DNA of 64,000 nt from Coffea arabica. Its lineage: Eukaryota > Streptophyta > Magnoliopsida > Gentianales > Rubiaceae. Below the pieces are notes generated by a model. It saw only the letters and a list, made by a program, of their open reading frames with translations. It had not been told where the DNA came from and ran no database searches. Both the position numbers and the translations under genes were made by a program. Positions within the stretch are counted from its first letter, which is position 1; every line of letters starts with the position of its first letter. Below are positions 52,550-62,095 of the stretch, in pieces. Location of the stretch: positions 28,776,501-28,840,500 of the forward strand of contig NC_092323.1 in assembly GCF_036785885.1 (NCBI RefSeq). The letters run 5' to 3'.

Positions 52550-52634
52550 GAGAAAATTCTTAAATTGTGATGAAAAAAAAAAGTTATTCTACAAAGGGGG
52601 TAATTTGTGGAGTTGGTTCCTGACTTGTGATTTT

Positions 52635-55214
52635 CGCATTTGTGAAATGCGAGTTCAGGTACCTCGCATTTGTGAAATGCGAGGTAAGTCTTTTCACGAA
52701 AAAAGAAAAAGAAGATCGCATTCTCCAAATGCGAGCTTACTCAGCTCGCATTAGGAGAATGCGAGATTAGGGACCTCGCATTTCATAAATGCGAGGTACT
52801 CAATTTGAAATCAATCAGACTTCCCAATTTCGCATTTCTCTTCCGTCGTGGCTACCTGTACTCTTTCCATGCAGCCTTTCACTCTCAAAATTATCTTGGT
52901 CTGAGCTTTGTCATCGGAAAGCAGAGCCACAGCTTTGTCGTCGGAATCTGTCGGCCTTCTCCTCGGAAGCTCTGCAATGTTGTAGAGTTACGGCGTTTCT
53001 CCTCAGGCGAAACCAGAAAGGCGGCATTTCTTCCCGTCCGAAGCTGTCATCGGAAGCTCTCTGCCATTGCAGAGCTTCCCCTTTGGGAACCCATCTCTGG
53101 TAGCTAGCTCCATTTAAGTCCGGCATCCGTCTTTCTCCATTTGCCATTCCTTTCACCAGAAACAGCATAAGAGGTAAGATTTTTTTTTTTCTGAGTTTTA
53201 ATTTTTTTCTGGGATTTTTTGTTTTTACGAATTGAAGTGGCTTTTATGATTTGGTAATTTATTGGACATTGTTGTTGTTTCGGTTGGCAATTTATTTGTG
53301 ACATTGTACATTGCTTGTTATCGGAGCTAAGTTTCTTCTTGTGGTTGATTACAAGAATGGGCTGTCCTAAGTTTCGGTTGGTGTAATGATAAATGTAGAC
53401 AATAAAGAAGATAGCATGTCAGATACCTTAAAGATGAATCATGCTATGAAAATTCATAAAGGACAGGAATCTTTTTACGTGCACACAATGCGCAGGAGTG
53501 CTTGAATATCCTCATATAATAAATTTTTTTTGATCTAGCAATTAAAGATCTAGCAAGTAAATCTGATATAACTTTTAAGATCATGCTATCCTTTGAATTT
53601 TTTCCCCTGTTGCTGTCTGTACTTTGAAAAATAAATGGAGTAAGAATTTGTTTATGCACTTACAAAAAATTAAAATAAAAACAATTTATTTACACACTTT
53701 CGAATTTATCCATTAATTCTTTGTCTATCCTTTTCATTTTTCATTTTTGCAATTGAAGCATGTTAATTACTTAATCTTCTTATGCCAAGTTGTTATTAAG
53801 TTATCCTTAATGGTGTAACAATGTTTTGGACAAATCAAATGTTGGAAAAAAAAAATCTAAGTCCATAATGACAACAACTACTCAAACAATTATACTTGAA
53901 TTTAAGCACTCTTATCCTTCCAAATTTTTAAACCCTGTATACGAAGTTTATATTAAGCACCATTTACTAAAGCTAACATTTATGGAGAAAATTCTTAAAG
54001 TGTGATGAAAAAAAAAAGTTATTCTACAAAGGGGGTAATTTTTGAGACTTGTGATCTTCGCATTTGTGAAATGCGAGTTCTGATACTTCGCATTTCACAA
54101 ATGCGAGGTCAGTCTTTTACGAAAAAAAGAAAAACAATGCGGTTGCATCCACATACTTTTTCTTTTATTTTGATTAATTTTGCTGGAGGTTAGCAGTTAG
54201 CTATTGCTTTCATGTGGAGGCAACATGGGATTAACGTGGATCAATATTGTATTGCAGAAACATGAAAGAGAAAAAAAGGAAAAACAGCAATCAATATTGC
54301 ATTCCAGAAACATGAAAGAGAAAAAAAAGGAAAAGCAGCAATCTAAGAACCATAGCTAGTTAATGCCAAGTTCTAAGTAGCTAGCTAGCCTACCAAAAAA
54401 ATAAAATCTTTAAGAAGCCATGCCGAAGCTGCAAAGAAACTTTGTCCTGGCTTTCTTAGTATTTAGTCTAAAACACCCTGCCTCAAAGATATTAGTTGTC
54501 GCATGTGGTGATTACAGTATTGCTTAATTGGTTTATAGGTTTGGACTTAGTTAAAGTTTTCCTTAAGCATATGGTCTGATAGGCTTCATGAAGTTGCCCA
54601 GTTTTTTTTACAGAAATGGAGCAGAGGATCTGCCTAGTTGGTGGGCTATCATGCTATTACAATGTCTACACATTTGACTGCTATGTGTTTTATCATAGTC
54701 TACGGTATCTGAGTAGCTTCTAGTATAATTTCTACTTTTACTGCTACTAGGGGCATCTGTACTTGGAAGTACTGGCACCCTCATGCTATCCATGCTAGCT
54801 TTAGGATCCATCACACTTTCCTGCAAACTCTGGAGAAAATTCTTAAATTGTGATGAAAAAAAAAAATTATTCTACAAAGGGGGTGATTTGTGAAGTTGGT
54901 TCCATAAATGTGATTTTCGCATTTGTGAAATGCGAGTTCAGGTTTTGTGCTCATACATTTTGCTTTTACTCAGGAAAAGTAATTAAAAATATGGCTTGGT
55001 AGCAGCAAAACTTTTTTTGTTTATTTTCTTTTTAATGGACTGACTATAACCATTACTTGCTAATTGTCGATATGAAAATGATGCTATATATATCAGATTC
55101 AAGCCATAGTTAAATTGTTGGGCATCAAAAATGAAAGAAATGGTAAAGAGCATAAACTGTAAGACTCGCATATGAGAAATGCGAACCTAGCACAGATCGC
55201 ATTTATAGAATGCG
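52635..55214. repeat. Ten 17-bp dyads, CGCATT-N5-AATGCG
   Basis: Positions: 52635-52651, 52665-52681, 52717-52733, 52747-52763, 52777-52793, 54059-54075, 54089-54105, 54918-54934, 55167-55183 (one arm imperfect) and 55198-55214. The 6-bp arms are almost invariant and total length is always 17 bp, while the five central bases vary (TGTGA, CTCCA, AGGAG, TCATA, TCACA, TATAG). Most are flanked by T/C on the left and A/G on the right, extending the symmetry. Spacing between neighbours is often exactly 30 bp (52635/52665, 52717/52747/52777, 54059/54089). Function is unknown; paired protein-binding sites or small hairpins are possible. Confidence 0.9.
52794..53173 (+). other. Putative leader exon of the MULE transposase gene
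   Basis: A GC-richer stretch follows the last clustered dyad and ends in AAGAG|GTAAGAT, a strong donor at 53174. The acceptor TCAAAATAG at 56949 precedes the transposase ATG by 17 bp. A leader exon with an intron of about 3.8 kb is therefore plausible. No long conserved protein was seen in it. The intron would contain several of the dyads. Confidence 0.4.
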
Positions 55215-56966
55215 AACACCTCCCTTGTCGGAATAGGACACCAAAGTAACCCCCTTCGTGGACCTTTTTTATTTTCTATAAGTATGTTTTCTATACCTAT
55301 GTTATTTAGTTTACCAACGCATATTTTCTTTGAAATTGGGGGAATAGATCCAAAAAGGTATATCGGAACAAGCAAGATCTACGGGAACGAGGTGGTTCAT
55401 CTGAACAAATCCCTCATTGCACCCCAGATCCTCTGCTCCAGTACCTTATCTTGGTTTTCTGTGATCTCCATCATATTCATGTAGGTGCATACAAAGTTTT
55501 CGACACAAGCCAGGAGACTTGAAGAGGCTTTGATTGGTACCACTAGGAAGTTGTACGCACAAGTGCATCTTCAGAATCTGAGGCAAATCATTGGGTAAGT
55601 CATGTAGTTTACAAGTAGATTTAATTGTAGTCATATTAATGTTCTAATTTTTTGAACTTTGCTTGGATTCGTTTTATGGTGAATTCATGAATGTAAAGTG
55701 AGACCCTCTACTGTAGTATATTTTTTAATTGCATGTTATGTTGGTTGACAGGGGAGTATAAGAAATTATTGTTGTTTCACACTCTACTATATACATTATA
55801 TTATTATTGTAGGTTTGTCAAATATCACAGTTCCTTGTCTTCTATAAGAAATTATTGTATATGAAATTATTCTACCGTATTTGCAGTGGTGTAAATTATC
55901 TCATATTTCTCAATTGTTTGAAAATCGATGTGCCTATGTTGGTTGGCAGGGAGTTTTAGCCAGTTACAGGGGAAACTCTGTCAAAATTTTTTTAAAATAT
56001 TTTTGGGTGTTTTTGATTAGTTATTGCCTTAAGAGTATAATAAGACAAATTGGCGACAATATGGACTCAAAAGGGGGGGTGCTTGGAAACGTTAAATAAA
56101 ACAAGATATCTGCCTACATTTAATAAACTTATACTCCATTTAATTAGGAATTCTTGACTAACATTTTGGCATGATGCGTAATAATGTATAGGCGGTTAGA
56201 GGGAATATTAACTTAGGTATAGAACTAAAAATATGTATACAAGACAAGCATGTATCACATTTGCTTGTACTACTAAAATATGAGAAAATTCTTAAATTGT
56301 GATGAAAAAAAAAGATATTCTACAAAGGGGCTAATTTCATGCCAACTTGTTATTAATGACAAGAACTACTCAAACAATTATACTTGAATTTACGCACCCT
56401 TATCCTTACAAATTTTTAAACCCTGTGTACGAACTTTATATTACACACCTCTTACTAAAGCTAACATTTATGAAGGTAAAGGCAAGGTTTGAAGTGAAAA
56501 TGCTTAATATTCCCGCTCCACTACTTTTGTCTTTTATACCAATCCTATATTTAGTATCGCTATTTGGAACCTATACCTTTTGCTAAAAACAGTGGGAAAA
56601 TATAAACTATTTATGATTTGACAATTCTAGTTATTATTAATTCCCTAAACACCCCTTTTCTCGATTTTTAGTCTTCTTACGTTAACCTCTGTTTAAATTA
56701 TCCTTATCATTCTAACCATTATATATGCAAAAAATAAGAGGATAATAAAACTATACCTACATAGTTGAATGTGATGCAAAGTTTAGATTTGGTGTGAAAT
56801 TTGGATGAAAAAATGATGTGGGTTGTGCTATTTTGTTGCATTTTTCCTGGGTAATTCAGTGGTAAATTTGGACCACATAAAAAAGTAGGGATTGTTATTT
56901 GTTATATATTCTTGTACCACATGAGCTAACTTATTTTATTTCAAAATAGGGATTCTTTTCACACGT

Positions 56967-59693
56967 ATGTCTATAGAAAGACCTGTGCGAGTGTCTCTTT
57001 ATTGGGGAGGTAGAATACACTACGAGGATGGGTCAATTTGTTACTTGCCTCGTACGTGCAACTGTACATTCTCATTACGATCCAAAATTGGATATGATGA
57101 GTTGGTGGATAGAATTTATCAATATATGGGGGTCGATAGGGGGTTGTTCAAGTTGAATATATTTCTCCGCCAACCTTGTGGCCGGAGCTCTTATAATGTC
57201 TCCCCAGTGGTGGATGATGAAACTCTGGAGATAATGTATGATGTATGGAACGAAATTGTTCCATACATCGCAGAACTTTATATCGAGAAGGAGGAAATAT
57301 TCCAAAATCCTCGAGTCACCGGGACATTCATTTCACCAAATACCAATTGTAGTCCGATGATGTCACTTGTCCATGCGTGCATGGATCTAACAAGGTTTCG
57401 ACCAAACTTTAGTACAGCAGTACCTGAGACAGCATCGGTATCACAATTGGCCCAGGGGGATTGTGTTAGGGATTCGTTAGAGCCACGTCTTCCATCAGGC
57501 TTAAGGACGGATGTTGAATCTGTTCAAGGCCTAGACTCGATTCAAAGTTTTAGAGATCGAGAATCACCGGAACATGTTGGTAGTTATGGCTTGGATTTCA
57601 CTGCCGGTCCAAGTCATTGTAACAGCCCCCTAGCTGATGATTCGGAGCATGATGTGGAAGATGTACAGGAATCTGAGTCGGTTGATGTGTCAGGCAGTGA
57701 CTCAGATGGCGAAATTGAACAACGTGGAGTCCACCAGGATGTCGAGAACCATCAGTCCTTTGATGCATCTGGCAACCTCTCATATGCTCCACGAGGATTG
57801 AAATTTTTCTCTAATCTTGGAAACATAGATGATGACGAGCATCTCACTGATGAAAGTGAGTTGGAGCGCATTGTGATATTCAGTGAGGAGAATAATAATA
57901 TAAGGATGCATATGAGATTTGAAAGCAAACAACAGCTGAGCAGGGCTATTAGAATGTGGTCTATCAATAATAATAGGGAGTTCAGGGTTGTTGAGAGTAA
58001 GAGTAACACCTGGGTTGCCAAATGTAAATCTGCAGTTCAAAGGAGTTTCACCACTGCGGCCGACTCATCGGAACCTCCATGCGACTGGTGTGTCCGAGCA
58101 GTGAAAAAAAAGACACATGGATTGTGGCAAATAACTAAGTGGGTGAACGATCACAATTGTCTAGGTGATTTGATCAGTAATAGCAATGCTAGCCTCACAT
58201 CGTCGGTTATTGCTAGACACATTGTTCATAGCATTGAAGACGATCTTGGGTACAAAGTAAAGAGCATAGTAAGTCATGTTAAAGAAGTGCTGAAGGTGGA
58301 TGTTTCTTATAAAAAGGCTTGGTACGGCAGACGCAAAGCTATTGAACTTGTATTTGGTTCTTGGGATGCCAATTTTGCCGACCTACCAAGATATGTTGAT
58401 GCACTTATGAAGTCAAATCAGGGTACTGTGATCAGGTGGTTGCACCGTTCTGATAGTACGGATCACATGAAGACATTTAAATATGTGTTTTGGGCCTTTG
58501 GATCGGCTATTGATGCATTTCACATGTGTCGACCGGTTATATGTGTTGATGGCACGCATTTGCGTGGCGAATATAAAGGCAAACTATTTGTTGCAGTCAC
58601 GCAAGATGCCAACAACAGGATTATTCCAATAGCTTATGCCATTGTCGACGAAGAGACTATTTCTAGTTGGTCTTGGTTCATGGAGCAATTTAGGTACCAC
58701 GTGGCCCGTGATCAGTGTCCTATTTGTGTCATTTCAGATCGGCATAATGGTATCATTCATGCCATGACACATTTTGACTATTGGCAGGAACCTTTGGCAT
58801 TTCATAGGTATTGCCTGCGACACGTTAGGAGTAACCTAATGACTCACTTCAAAGGTTTGCACCTAAAAAGGTTGTGTTGGGCAATGGGAAGAGCCAGACA
58901 ATTGCGCAAGTGGCGGGCATTCAAACGAGAATTGCGGAGCACGTTTCCAGGCGCATGGACTTATCTGTCTAACATTGAAATCGAAAAGTGGTGTCTAACA
59001 CATGACGGTGAGCATCGGTGGGGTATTTTGACAACCAACATATCCGAAAGTTATAATAATGTATTTAGAGGAGCACGTCATTTGCCTATCCGGGCTTGTA
59101 TTGATTTGACTTTTCATCGGACAGTTGAGTTGTTTAAAACAAGAAGGGAGGAGGCCAGACATTGCCGTAATCCATTTCCTCCTAAGATATGGCGGAAGTT
59201 TAAGAATTCGGATCAGAAAGCGGGATGTCACAGGGTTGTTGAATTCGATGGCTCTTCCGGGGTGTATAAAGTTGTGACAGGCCGACGTGTGGATGGCAAA
59301 GGGGGTAATACACAAACGGTCAAATATTTTGAAAACACTTGCTCTTGTGGTAAGTGGCAGTGTTACAGACTGCCCTGTTCGCACGTGTTGGCTGTGTGCA
59401 GGCACCGAAGGGATAATCCAGGAGCGCTTGTAGACCCTCAGTTCACAAAAAGGCGATGGGCAGTGCAGTATTCAGGAAAGTTTAACCCTTTGCCACATCG
59501 GGATACTTGGCTCCAACCAGATTGGGAGCTGCAGGCAGATAGAAGTAAATATGTTGCCCGTCGGGCGGGAAGGGTACGAGCTAGAAGAATTCGGAATGAG
59601 ATGGATGAGAGAGACCCTGAGGAACCAAGAAGGTGTACAAATTGTCATCAGTCGGGCCACAATAGAAGAAATTGCCCTAATTTTAGAGCTTGA
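56967..59693 (+). CDS. Mutator-like (MULE/MuDR) transposase, intact 908 codons
   Basis: Cut-and-paste transposase acting on Mutator-type inverted ends. In order: an N-terminal PB1-like region (about 1-115, VRVSLYWGGRIHYEDGSICY); an acidic linker (about 220-300); a MuDR-type DNA-binding domain (about 313-400, MRFESKQQLSRAIRMWSIN, with a CDWC/HNC zinc pattern); the catalytic core with Asp about 528 (ICVDGTHLRG), Asp about 591 (VISDRHNGI), the C/H motif YCLRH and Glu about 694 (TNISESYNN); a SWIM finger (about 790-812, CSCGKWQCYRLPCSH); and a C-terminal CCHC knuckle (CTNCHQSGHNRRNC). No stop or frameshift, and all catalytic residues are present, so it may be active or only recently silenced. ATG 56967 gives the full PB1-like start. 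Confidence 0.95.
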   Translation: MSIERPVRVSLYWGGRIHYEDGSICYLPRTCNCTFSLRSKIGYDELVDRIYQYMGVDRGLFKLNIFLRQPCGRSSYNVSPVVDDETLEIMYDVWNEIVPYIAELYIEKEEIFQNPRVTGTFISPNTNCSPMMSLVHACMDLTRFRPNFSTAVPETASVSQLAQGDCVRDSLEPRLPSGLRTDVESVQGLDSIQSFRDRESPEHVGSYGLDFTAGPSHCNSPLADDSEHDVEDVQESESVDVSGSDSDGEIEQRGVHQDVENHQSFDASGNLSYAPRGLKFFSNLGNIDDDEHLTDESELERIVIFSEENNNIRMHMRFESKQQLSRAIRMWSINNNREFRVVESKSNTWVAKCKSAVQRSFTTAADSSEPPCDWCVRAVKKKTHGLWQITKWVNDHNCLGDLISNSNASLTSSVIARHIVHSIEDDLGYKVKSIVSHVKEVLKVDVSYKKAWYGRRKAIELVFGSWDANFADLPRYVDALMKSNQGTVIRWLHRSDSTDHMKTFKYVFWAFGSAIDAFHMCRPVICVDGTHLRGEYKGKLFVAVTQDANNRIIPIAYAIVDEETISSWSWFMEQFRYHVARDQCPICVISDRHNGIIHAMTHFDYWQEPLAFHRYCLRHVRSNLMTHFKGLHLKRLCWAMGRARQLRKWRAFKRELRSTFPGAWTYLSNIEIEKWCLTHDGEHRWGILTTNISESYNNVFRGARHLPIRACIDLTFHRTVELFKTRREEARHCRNPFPPKIWRKFKNSDQKAGCHRVVEFDGSSGVYKVVTGRRVDGKGGNTQTVKYFENTCSCGKWQCYRLPCSHVLAVCRHRRDNPGALVDPQFTKRRWAVQYSGKFNPLPHRDTWLQPDWELQADRSKYVARRAGRVRARRIRNEMDERDPEEPRRCTNCHQSGHNRRNCPNFRA

Positions 59694-59939
59694 TTTTGTT
59701 ATTTAGCCAATAGATCCATTGTACTCCTCGTACCTTGGTAGGATTTTCGAAGTAGTATATTATATGTGATACCTTTTGGATGAAACATTTTCATGATATT
59801 ATAATTCTGATTTATTTTGAGCTGTTTCGCATATTTAAAGTCGATATAATATGAATTCGCATCTAGATCTCCTATTCTACTACCCTAATGTGTGTGGTCG
59901 TATCTCTCACCTATGCAATTTGCAGATACTATTTTTGGT

Positions 59940-60605
59940 ATGGCAGACATCCCTATACAGCCAGACCTACATCCGGGTCCATTTGTGTATGATGTTATAC
60001 CAGCAGGTTCAGTTCACCGGGCATATTCTATATTTCACGGGCATATTGTGGGTGATCAGCTGGATGTTAGGAGATGTGATAGGGGTTTTTGGGAGCATAC
60101 ACCTATTCCCGAAACTGTTCGGCATTATATTCGATTGACGGGTTTTGAAGGGGTATTAGAGTGTGGATATATGATGATTGACCATGCCTTGATCACTAGT
60201 TTAGTGGAGCGGTGGCGGCCCGAGACTCATACATTTCATCTCCCCGTTGGGGAGACTACGGTTACCTTACAAGATATAGAGGTCCTGTGGGGGCTACCCA
60301 TAGATGGACCTCCAGTTACAGGGATAGATACATCTCATAGCGTTGAGGAGTGGAGAAATTTATGTGAGGAGTTGCTTGGTTTCTCTCCAATGATGTCCGA
60401 TTTTGATGGACAACGGCTCAAATTGGGGTGTTTATCTAGAGTATTAGATTTAGAGCTGCCACCGGATGCCCCGGATGTTCAATGTCGACAGCGGGCCCGC
60501 ATATTCCCGCTTCTTCTGTTAGGGGGCCACTTATTGTCCGATAGGATTTATTCACAAAATTATACATTTGTATACATTTATATTAACATTTATGTATATT
60601 TATAA
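59940..60605 (+). pseudogene. Plant mobile domain (PMD) protein, C-terminally truncated
   Basis: From ATG 59940 the frame reads MADIPIQPDLHPGPFVYDVI, an N-terminal helix region, then ETHTFHLPVGETTVTLQDIE and VLWGLPIDGPPVTG. These are the hallmark motifs of the aminotransferase-like plant mobile domain found in MAIN/MAIL1 and in many transposons. About 205 residues are clearly PMD, ending near LLLLGGHLLSDR. The frame then runs into AT-rich simple sequence and stops at 60605, so the second half of the domain is missing, unless an intron begins here. It lies 247 bp after the transposase, in the same orientation, as in PMD-carrying MULEs. Confidence 0.85.
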
Positions 60606-61758
60606 TATACATTAATATTATGTGTAGACACCAAATTTTTGAATAATTTTTTTTATTATTGCATTATCTATTTTATTGGTCAATTTCATGTTTTTGGGGC
60701 ATTTTCTAGCATTTTCTAGCATTTTAGATTATTAATTATTATTACTGTTATTTTATTCTCGTTTCTCTTATGTTATTTGTTGCTCATTTAGTTGGCCTTA
60801 AATAAAAAATGAATGAAAAAAAAAGAAAGAAGAAGAAGAAAGAAAATTATTCACAAAATAGGATTTATTACTGTTAAATTACCATTTGTTATTTAAAAAA
60901 AAAAAAAGGAAAAAGAAGGAAACCCGCACGCGGGTTTTAGGCTGATTAAGAGATTCTGAAGAAAAAAAAAAAAAAAAACAGCCGCGCATGCAGCAGCGAC
61001 GGGGAATGATATTTTTCATGGGATCGATGGCTGAGGATTGTGGTGGGAATCAGCCTTTCATCCTCACCTTTGAGGTGAGGGTTTGAGGGTTATGATTCCC
61101 CATATAAAAAGAAAAGAAAACAGCAGAGAACGGGGGGGGGGAGTTTTATGACGGCTGGAGTCTTAGAGAGAGCTAGAGAGGGCGACGGAAAAGGAAACGA
61201 AAAAACACAGAGAGAGGGGTTTTTCTTGGAGGACGGCTGAGTGAGTGGAAAAAAAAACCAGGAGAGTCGGGGGTTTGAGATGAGGGTTGATGAAAAAGAC
61301 GCAGCTTTGAGCGAGAGGGAGGGCTGAGAGCGAAGTCTGATGAAGTTGACGGCTGGACAAAAAAGTGGGGCGCGACATTATGTATTATATGTATTATGTA
61401 TAATATAATACATTTATACATTTATATTAATCTGCATAATATTAATTAAACATTTATATTAATTATATTAATACATTTATAGATAAAATGTATATATATA
61501 TTTATAATATATTAATTTATACATTTATATTGTATTAATTTATAATTTATACAATTATTACATTTATATTATATTTATATCATGTATTATATACAATATA
61601 ATATATTTTTGTATTTTTATATAATTATATAAATATATTTATTTATAAATATTTATAAATTTATTACAAACACATAAATGTATATCAATATTTAAACAAT
61701 AAAAATTATAAATTATAAAAAAATTATTAATTAGGTAAATTATAAAAAATTATTAATT
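60562..61758. repeat. AT-rich low-complexity sequence around solo LTR 4
   Basis: 60562-60617 and 61383-61758 are almost pure A/T with recurring ATACATTTATATTA and TATTATATGTAT words. It is probably an expanded simple repeat. Solo LTR 4 inserted into it, and it interrupts the PMD reading frame. Confidence 0.8.
60618..61382 (+). mobile_element. Solo LTR 4 (60623-61377) with TTATG target duplication
   Basis: The element begins TGTAGACACCAAATTTTTG and ends GGGGCGCGACA. It is flanked by perfect TTATG at 60618-60622 and 61378-61382. It is 755 bp, with TG...CA ends, a possible TATA (CATATAAAAAG, about 61101) and a small GC hairpin (ACCCGCACGCGGGT, about 60923). It is unrelated to solo LTRs 1-3. No internal retroelement sequence is present. 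Confidence 0.82.
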
Positions 61759-61841
61759 AGGAGAATGCGAGATTAAGTATTCCCATGGAATGCGAGGTAC
61801 TCAATCTGATATCGTAAGAATTCCCAATTCCCAGACAAACA

Positions 61842-62095
61842 CCAGTGCCGGTGTTTCAAGAACCTGTTGCGCCGGTGTTTCCCTGGCGCCGGTGTTACTC
61901 TTCTTAAGATGCGCCGGTGTTTCCCTGGAACCTAAGGGAGTTTCTTATTCCCAGACAAACACCGGCGCCGGTGTTACTCTTCTTAAGATGCGCCGGTGTT
62001 TCCCTGGAACCTAAAGGAGTTTCTTATTCCCAGACAAACACCGGCGCCGGTTTTACTCTTCTTAAGATGCGCCGGTGTTTCTCTGACATACAGGT
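61842..62095 (+). repeat. GC-rich tandem array built on GCGCCGGTGTT
   Basis: Eight copies of the core (A/G)(C/T)GCCGGTGTT or close variants occur in 250 bp. The larger unit is 79 bp (TTCTTATTCCCAGACAAACA, CCGGCGCCGGTG, a CTTCTTAAGAT spacer, then GCGCCGGTGTTTCCCTGG), with two clear copies (about 61942 and 62021) and a diverged first one (about 61825). The phrase ACACCGGCGCCGGTGT is a perfect palindrome. It stands out sharply from the AT-rich surroundings. Confidence 0.85.

What the first reader, a model, noticed from the sequence alone, without database searches (positions are those of the whole stretch)
52635..55214. Ten fixed-length 17-bp dyads, CGCATT-N5-AATGCG, upstream of a MULE transposase
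Both arms are nearly invariant and total length is always 17 bp, while the five central bases vary. Many neighbours are spaced exactly 30 bp apart. This is not simple sequence or a by-product of one duplication, because they sit in different contexts and in both orientations of the surrounding module. The pattern suggests selection on paired half-sites (a dimeric binding protein, possibly the transposase or its PMD partner) or on small RNA hairpins. A relative of the module recurs at 61760.
Basis: seen in the sequence. Interest (0 to 1): 0.75.

Follow-up and report, generated by a model that had tools for sequence, protein, structure and literature searches.

The report
Palindromic arrays in a jumping gene's ends
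The repeated 17-letter mirror motifs are a regular part of both ends of a large family of jumping genes in what looks like a plant genome, probably docking sites for a protein of the element, and their arms stay fixed while their middle letters flip and their number changes from copy to copy.

Summary
The window holds nine exact dyads and one with a single mismatch. The 1.2-Gb genome (unnamed, plant-like) holds 2,850 exact CGCATT-N5-AATGCG sites against 8 for the reversed control; the 30 other spacings from 0 to 30 share about 471. The dyads are not just upstream of a MULE: they form short arrays inside both terminal inverted repeats of a Mutator-like (MULE) family, in large transposase-bearing copies and in 0.8-3.4 kb relatives, flanked by 9-10 bp target-site duplications. 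The first dyad begins 83-88 nt from the terminus, the next usually about 30 bp further in. The motif is better written CGCATTY-N3-RAATGCG (2,717 of 2,850). Arms are nearly invariant (A/T arm bases 0 of 828 changed in four slots of 35 left ends) while centres and spacers drift about 10%, and arms show no compensatory change, which favours DNA-sequence recognition over hairpins. Centres invert and 30-bp units come and go, even between copies of what looks like one duplicated insertion. Best reading: subterminal binding sites for a dimeric element-encoded protein, most likely the transposase; a new variant of a known kind.

The parts
52550..52800 (+). Left (A-type) terminal inverted repeat of the MULE, with five dyads; terminus GAGAAAATTCTT at 52550
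   Evidence: 98% identical to the left end L058 of an element on C2 whose two ends carry a 9-bp target-site duplication; first dyad at terminal position 86
52635..52651 (.). Dyad 1, centre TGTGA
   Evidence: exact
52665..52681 (.). Dyad 2, centre TGTGA (35 of 37 other left ends with a dyad in this slot have the reverse complement TCACA)
52717..52733 (.). Dyad 3, centre CTCCA
   Evidence: exact
52747..52763 (.). Dyad 4, centre AGGAG
   Evidence: exact
52777..52793 (.). Dyad 5, centre TCATA
   Evidence: exact
53985..54137 (+). Second copy of the left end (85% to the first), with dyads at 54059-54075 and 54089-54105
54833..54943 (+). Third, truncated copy of the left end (94%), with one dyad at 54918-54934
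55165..55271 (-). Degenerate end fragment in the opposite orientation with dyads at 55167-55183 (one mismatch) and 55198-55214
   Evidence: 72% to the left end region of L005
56282..56337 (+). Fourth fragment of the left terminus, no dyad
56967..59693 (+). MULE transposase ORF, 908 aa, no internal stop
   Evidence: PF10551 E 6.6e-19, SWIM 5.3e-7; the DBD_Tnp_Mut match (E 0.00029) is below its curated cut-off
59892..60605 (+). PMD ORF, 237 aa, covers only part of the domain (profile 1-128 of 347)
   Evidence: PF10536 E 7.1e-30; the relative in L049 matches profile 3-181 and 238-347 in two ORFs
61756..61829 (+). Relic of the inner part of a left-end dyad array (no complete dyad)
   Evidence: 79% to 52750-52829

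Best explanation
The dyads are subterminal, two-fold symmetric DNA-binding sites built into both terminal inverted repeats of a MULE family. A protein acting as a dimer reads the two half-sites CGCATTY, 3 bp apart; sites about 30 bp apart (about three helical turns) would let two dimers sit on one face at a fixed distance (first dyad start 83-88 nt) from the cleaved terminus. The most likely protein is the element's own transposase, bringing the two ends together for excision and insertion. SHOWN: location in both ends, fixed offset, target-site duplications, arm conservation, no compensatory change in arms, exact spacing, linkage to MULE genes. INFERRED: protein binding, dimer, identity of the protein, role in transposition. 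On top of this a mutational process, most simply template switching and slippage at the inverted repeats, flips centres and adds or removes 30-bp units; it may also keep neighbouring centres complementary.
For: Enrichment and exact spacing. Complete elements: 12 inward-facing end pairs on one chromosome with perfect 9-10 bp duplications (10, one, one more), 11 of them around a transposase copy listed. A-type hits with an inward transposase within 15 kb: 13 of 40 (the window's among them), all 13 upstream in the gene's orientation. Small elements on C1: 7 of 13 loci gave a perfect 10-bp duplication, and in 13 of their 14 ends the first dyad starts 83-88 nt from the terminus. Four slots in 35 distinct left ends: arms 13 of 1,659 cells changed (12 of the 13 at CG), A/T arm bases 0 of 828; centres 71 of 694, between dyads 211 of 2,103, terminal 85 nt 161 of 2,969. 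First two B slots: 2 of 384 arm cells versus 26 of 160 centre cells. Arm covariation: both-side changes 0; Y/R edges not associated (odds ratio 0.88, p 0.85; 0.52, p 0.40, and 0.18, p 0.08, in two subsets). Centres stay mostly slot-specific, so arms are not equal merely by copying between slots. Precedent: in Aedes, 10 of 12 long-TIR MULE families have 9-15 bp subterminal tandem repeats, and one of them, Muta1, is active (PMC5225508, passages).
Against: No binding, expression or transposition data. Ends were found with queries that contain dyads, so their offsets and conservation are partly ascertained (the C1 loci were found by the dyad but delimited by the duplication). Arms are not immune: in the 59 ends, 30 of 292 dyads have one arm mismatch and 7 have two, and 6 of the 30 are at A or T positions; all six B slots together give 78 of 1,298 changed arm cells. 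Array length varies between copies, down to no dyad at the right end of the C7 copy, so the full array cannot be strictly required at both ends. The transposase's DNA-binding-domain match is below cut-off. 28 of 50 transposase copies had no end among the 40 best hits of either query. Template switching can homogenise inverted-repeat arms and may add to arm sameness.
Confidence: 0.62

Rival explanations
1. Anti-silencing targets: the dyad arrays are recognised by an element-encoded protein (PMD or another ORF) that removes silencing marks from the family's own copies, as VANC proteins do at motif arrays in VANDAL MULEs.
For: VANC21 binds a 9-bp motif arrayed in non-coding regions of VANDAL21, and the arrays evolve by gain and loss of tandem units (PMC5735166, passages). 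30-bp units are gained and lost here too. The window copy and a C4 copy carry PMD, and PMC5418596 (passages) speculates that MULE-captured PMD serves anti-silencing.
Against: [quoted passage not shown] here sites are palindromic, lie at both termini at a fixed offset and are kept in small copies. No VANC sequence was compared; only the ORFs were scanned.
Confidence: 0.17
2. Hairpin function: transcripts or single strands fold at the dyads or dyad pairs and give small RNAs, or a cruciform is the recognised shape.
For: Five of five dyad pairs tested fold far better than shuffles (RNA -22.8 to -43.7 kcal/mol, z -5.3 to -12.2). The pair-level palindrome shows some covariation: cells changed on both sides 10 (0 of 500 shuffles) in B ends and 9 (1 of 500) in A ends.
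Against: The measures less sensitive to relatedness are weak: pairs with both-side change 4 (17 of 500 shuffles) and 3 (186 of 500), further pair types 242 of 500 and 75 of 500. Single-dyad stems have no both-side change; arm sequence is fixed, which a stem does not need; the seventh pair is often C..A or T..G without compensation. Arm homogenisation and spacer inversion are also products of template switching (PMC8604942, PMC8794818).
Confidence: 0.1
3. No function: palindromes spread by slippage and template switching and carried along by the transposon.
For: Array length and centre orientation differ between copies of what looks like one duplicated insertion that are otherwise nearly identical.
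Against: Fixed offset from both termini, arms more conserved than neighbouring and terminal sequence, exact spacing genome-wide, dyads in ends next to transposase copies from 84% to 100% identity and about 1.6 kb from one 77% copy.
Confidence: 0.08

Closest known systems
Aedes aegypti Muta1, Muta5 and related MULEs with subterminal tandem repeats (PMC5225508, passages)
   Same: MULE transposase, long TIRs, short repeats in arrays inside the terminus, many derivative elements sharing mainly the ends, variable repeat number; target-site duplications of 8-9 bp there, 9-10 bp here
   Different: Muta1 has nine 12-bp tandem repeats with 3-4 bp spacers and a separate 10-bp palindromic terminal motif; here the repeats themselves are 17-bp palindromes about 30 bp apart starting about 85 nt in, and PMD and Transposase_32 genes accompany the transposase
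VANDAL21/VANC21 motif arrays of Arabidopsis MULEs (PMC5735166 passages; PMC10398659 abstract and outline)
   Same: family-specific short motifs in arrays in non-coding parts of MULEs, with gain and loss of tandem units
   Different: VANC21 motif is 9 bp, arrayed in one orientation, in introns and upstream regions; anti-silencing is shown there and untested here
Maize MuDR/Mu TIR with MURA binding site (recalled; only a search listing was seen)
   Same: transposase site inside long TIRs (recalled)
   Different: recalled as one conserved site per TIR rather than an array of palindromes
Spacer inversion and arm homogenisation at short inverted repeats by template switching (PMC8604942 passages; PMC8794818 abstract)
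   Same: exact inversion of short centres between perfect arms longer than 9 bp; arm homogenisation
   Different: described in yeast genes and RNA genes; here in the end arrays of one transposon family

Membership tests
Mutator-like elements (MULE) | MULE-type transposase | tested here: met
   PF10551 E 6.6e-19 plus SWIM; 50 scored copies, 16 of 56 listed matches full length without internal stop
Mutator-like elements (MULE) | Target-site duplications of about 8-11 bp | tested here: met
   Perfect 9-10 bp in 12 large elements and 10 bp in 7 of 13 small-element loci; none found by eye for C4:8.03 Mb, C7 and C15:49.37 Mb; not determined for the window copy
Mutator-like elements (MULE) | Terminal inverted repeats | tested here: met
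   Left and right ends of the C4:8.03 Mb copy 82% over 292 columns; A- and B-type ends
MULEs with subterminal repeat arrays (Muta1 kind) | Array of short repeats inside both TIRs | tested here: met
   exception: the right end of the C7 copy
MULEs with subterminal repeat arrays (Muta1 kind) | Repeats needed for transposition | not testable with these tools
   needs an excision assay
VANDAL/VANC anti-silencing system | VANC gene in the element | not tested
   no VANC sequence was compared; families matched were MULE, SWIM, PMD, Transposase_32
VANDAL/VANC anti-silencing system | Motifs arrayed in one orientation | tested here: not met
   sites are palindromic; of 136 distinct neighbouring pairs 36 have exactly reverse-complementary centres, 8 identical, 92 other
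Small-RNA or RNA-structure element | Compensatory changes in the stem | tested here: inconclusive
   single-dyad stems: none; pair-level palindrome: some, with mixed support against shuffles

The most novel reading that the evidence does not exclude
The dyads are the recognition code of a MULE self-protection system run by the captured plant mobile domain (PMD) protein: PMD dimers bind arrays of CGCATTY-N3-RAATGCG in both ends of family members and keep them unsilenced, and template-switching palindromes supply rapidly changing arrays with fixed arms.
Probability: 0.13. Interest if true: 0.82.

Novelty: new variant of a known kind. Interest (0 to 1): 0.5.

Why it matters
It gives a precise, testable recognition motif (CGCATTY-N3-RAATGCG, first site about 85 nt from the terminus, 30-bp repeat) for a MULE family that also carries the plant mobile domain, whose role inside transposons is unknown. 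It also offers a natural record of centre inversion and unit gain at palindromes: many copies with fixed arms, some apparently duplicated copies of one insertion, in which inversion can be told from point mutation.

Tried and rejected
Rejected: chance; unrelated tandem DNA (the sites recur in element ends with target-site duplications); a stem-loop function of the single dyad as the reason for arm conservation; copying between slots as the only reason for invariant arms (centres mostly slot-specific).

Weaker, limited or contrary results: the within-slot inversion test gave 7 exact reverse complements among 80 variant pairs with three or more differences, against 27 of 1,200 across slots; the across-slot control itself contains complementary neighbours. 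CAAGA in four left ends is one branch of the tree, so cells are not events. Covariation of the pair-level palindrome is strong on two measures and weak on two others. The arm statistics of all B slots together (78 of 1,298) include a decayed last unit and gaps; the first two slots give 2 of 384. 28 of 50 transposase copies, with all 72% copies and the 75-77% copies among them, have no end among the 40 best hits of either end query; for one 77% copy (C2:43907437) three dyads about 1.6 kb upstream are known from coordinates only. Dropped rows: L074/L084 (one mismatch, different chromosomes); L096/L109 (share a duplication but face the same way); L057/L051 (perfect 10-bp match on different chromosomes, purine-rich). 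PMD and Transposase_32 were looked for in the C4:8.03 Mb copy only, PMD also in the window; that copy shows no target-site duplication. The small elements were not scanned for genes. Not done: the count of the T..A version, searches with the older end types of L006, and the right end of the window copy. Literature searches listed no paper on palindromic subterminal arrays in plant MULEs; the library holds open-licence papers only.

Full report
OBSERVATION. CGCATT-N5-AATGCG occurs 2,850 times, the same pattern read backwards 8 times. With any spacing from 0 to 30 the count is 3,321 against a control of 251, so N5 alone holds 2,850 and the other 30 spacings about 471, part of which are arms of neighbouring dyads. 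Two exact dyads with 3-33 bp between them occur 1,057 times, control 0. The centre is restricted: 2,717 of 2,850 are Y-N3-R, so the site is better written CGCATTY-N3-RAATGCG.

WHAT IT IS. Dyad loci from the first contig (13 loci) and ends found by DNA search (40 candidates scored of 505 and of 842) belong to related transposon ends. Two end types occur, A (GAGAAAATTCTTAAATTGTGATG...) and B (GAGAAATTTCTAAAATTATTATG...). A search with the window's transposase scored 50 of 3,052 first-look candidates; 16 of 56 listed matches cover the whole protein with no internal stop. Twelve pairs of inward-facing ends carry perfect 9-10 bp target-site duplications (10, C4:15.6 Mb, C20:53.1 Mb), and 11 of the 12 surround a listed transposase copy. 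From the end coordinates, ten of the twelve span 7.6-13.8 kb and two 42 and 47 kb. Of 40 A-type hits, 13 (the window's included) have a transposase inward within 15 kb, all 13 upstream in the gene's own orientation. Of the 13 contig-1 loci, 7 gave small elements of 0.8-3.4 kb with perfect 10-bp duplications. One large copy (C4:8.03 Mb) was scanned for further genes: PMD in two ORFs and a Transposase_32 protein; the window has transposase and a partial PMD. The window copy has its left end at 52550, 4.4 kb before the transposase, like the element at C2:41.71 Mb; its right end was not seen.

ANATOMY. In 59 of 59 A and B ends the first dyad starts at position 85-87 from the terminus, and in 57 of 59 another starts at 114-117 (up to two arm mismatches allowed; the search queries contained these dyads). 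In the small elements, found by the dyad but delimited by the duplication, the first dyad starts at 83-88 in 13 of 14 ends; in the exception it is decayed. In most ends further dyads follow after an A-rich gap. Of 162 distinct neighbour intervals under 60 bp, 100 are 30 bp and 21 are 31 bp.

SELECTION ON ARMS. In the first four slots of 35 distinct A ends, 13 of 1,659 arm cells depart from the majority, 12 of them at CG; A and T arm positions 0 of 828. Centres: 71 of 694; between dyads 211 of 2,103; terminal 85 nt 161 of 2,969. In the first two B slots 2 of 384 arm cells are changed against 26 of 160 in centres. Over all slots of the 59 ends, 255 of 292 dyads are exact, 30 have one arm mismatch and 7 two; 6 of the 30 are at A or T positions, so later slots do decay. 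Slots mostly keep their own centres, so arms are not simply copied between slots. If pairing mattered, arms should change in compensating pairs; both-side changes in the single-dyad stems are zero, and the edges of the centre vary independently (T-A 127, C-A 44, T-G 36, C-G 11 among 244 exact dyads; odds ratio 0.88; no excess of matching pairs in two subsets). This points to recognition of the base sequence of two half-sites.

HOW THE ARRAYS CHANGE. Neighbouring dyads often have reverse-complementary centres: 36 of 136 distinct pairs exactly, 8 identical; in the first loci 15 of 42 agree at the middle three bases, 2,000 shuffles 2.85 on average and at most 9. Taken as one 53-base palindrome, B ends show both-side changes at 4 positions (10 cells, 0 of 500 shuffles) and A ends at 3 (9 cells, 1 of 500), but the number of such positions is reached by 17 and 186 of 500 shuffles, and the number of pair types by 242 and 75, so this covariation is suggestive only. 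Centres invert as a block, for instance TCTTG and CAAGA, TTCCA and TGGAA, and the spacer CTT and AAG. Near-identical large copies differ by whole 30-bp units. Four copies with the same left flank (L066, L067, L093, L094; two on C10, two on C9), most simply one insertion in duplicated chromosome segments, are nearly identical, yet two have two more units and an inverted three-base centre between 11-bp arms. So the change does not seem to need transposition. Inversion of short spacers, seen only with arms over 9 bp, together with arm homogenisation, is reported for template switching in yeast (PMC8604942, passages); template switching can also make and maintain hairpins (PMC8794818, abstract).

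MECHANISM. The best-supported reading is a cis-acting subterminal site for a dimeric protein encoded by the element, most likely the transposase, with about 30 bp between sites and about 85 nt to the cut. Location, offset, spacing and arm conservation are shown; binding, the protein and the role are inferred. Rivals are an anti-silencing target of PMD or another protein, a hairpin role of the pair, and no function.

COMPARISON. MULEs with arrays of short subterminal repeats in long TIRs are known in Aedes (10 of 12 long-TIR families, PMC5225508, passages), so the kind is known. What differs is that the repeat is a palindrome of two half-sites with a drifting and inverting centre, at a fixed offset, in a family with PMD. 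VANC motif arrays (PMC5735166, passages; PMC10398659, abstract and outline) are the nearest functional parallel for anti-silencing, and PMC5418596 (passages) speculates that MULE-borne PMD serves that purpose. The searches listed no description of such palindromic arrays in plant MULEs.

Noticed in passing
61848-62085: A second, GC-rich palindromic array (79-bp unit, core ACACCGGCGCCGGTGT, nine half-sites) follows the broken PMD gene; such half-sites also occur downstream of two 97% transposase copies (L019, L020) and in none of the other 28 loci (which reach only 1.5 kb past the gene) nor in L049 or L051.
   Followed up: partly
L066, L067, L093, L094: What looks like one transposon insertion is present at four places (two on C10, two on C9) with identical flank, suggesting duplicated chromosome segments or assembly copies.
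   Followed up: partly
60540-61760: The PMD reading frame runs into a long stretch that includes AT-rich short repeats and inverted repeats.
   Followed up: no
53866-53987 and 56354-56475: A 122-bp direct repeat (91%) lies just before the second left-end copy and just after the fourth end fragment, suggesting nested insertions in the 5' region.
   Followed up: no
L051: The right end of the C7 copy, whose 8.4 kb downstream of the transposase are 99.6% identical to the C4:8.03 Mb copy, has lost its dyad array; the 10 bp beyond it equal those beside the left end L057 on another chromosome.
   Followed up: partly
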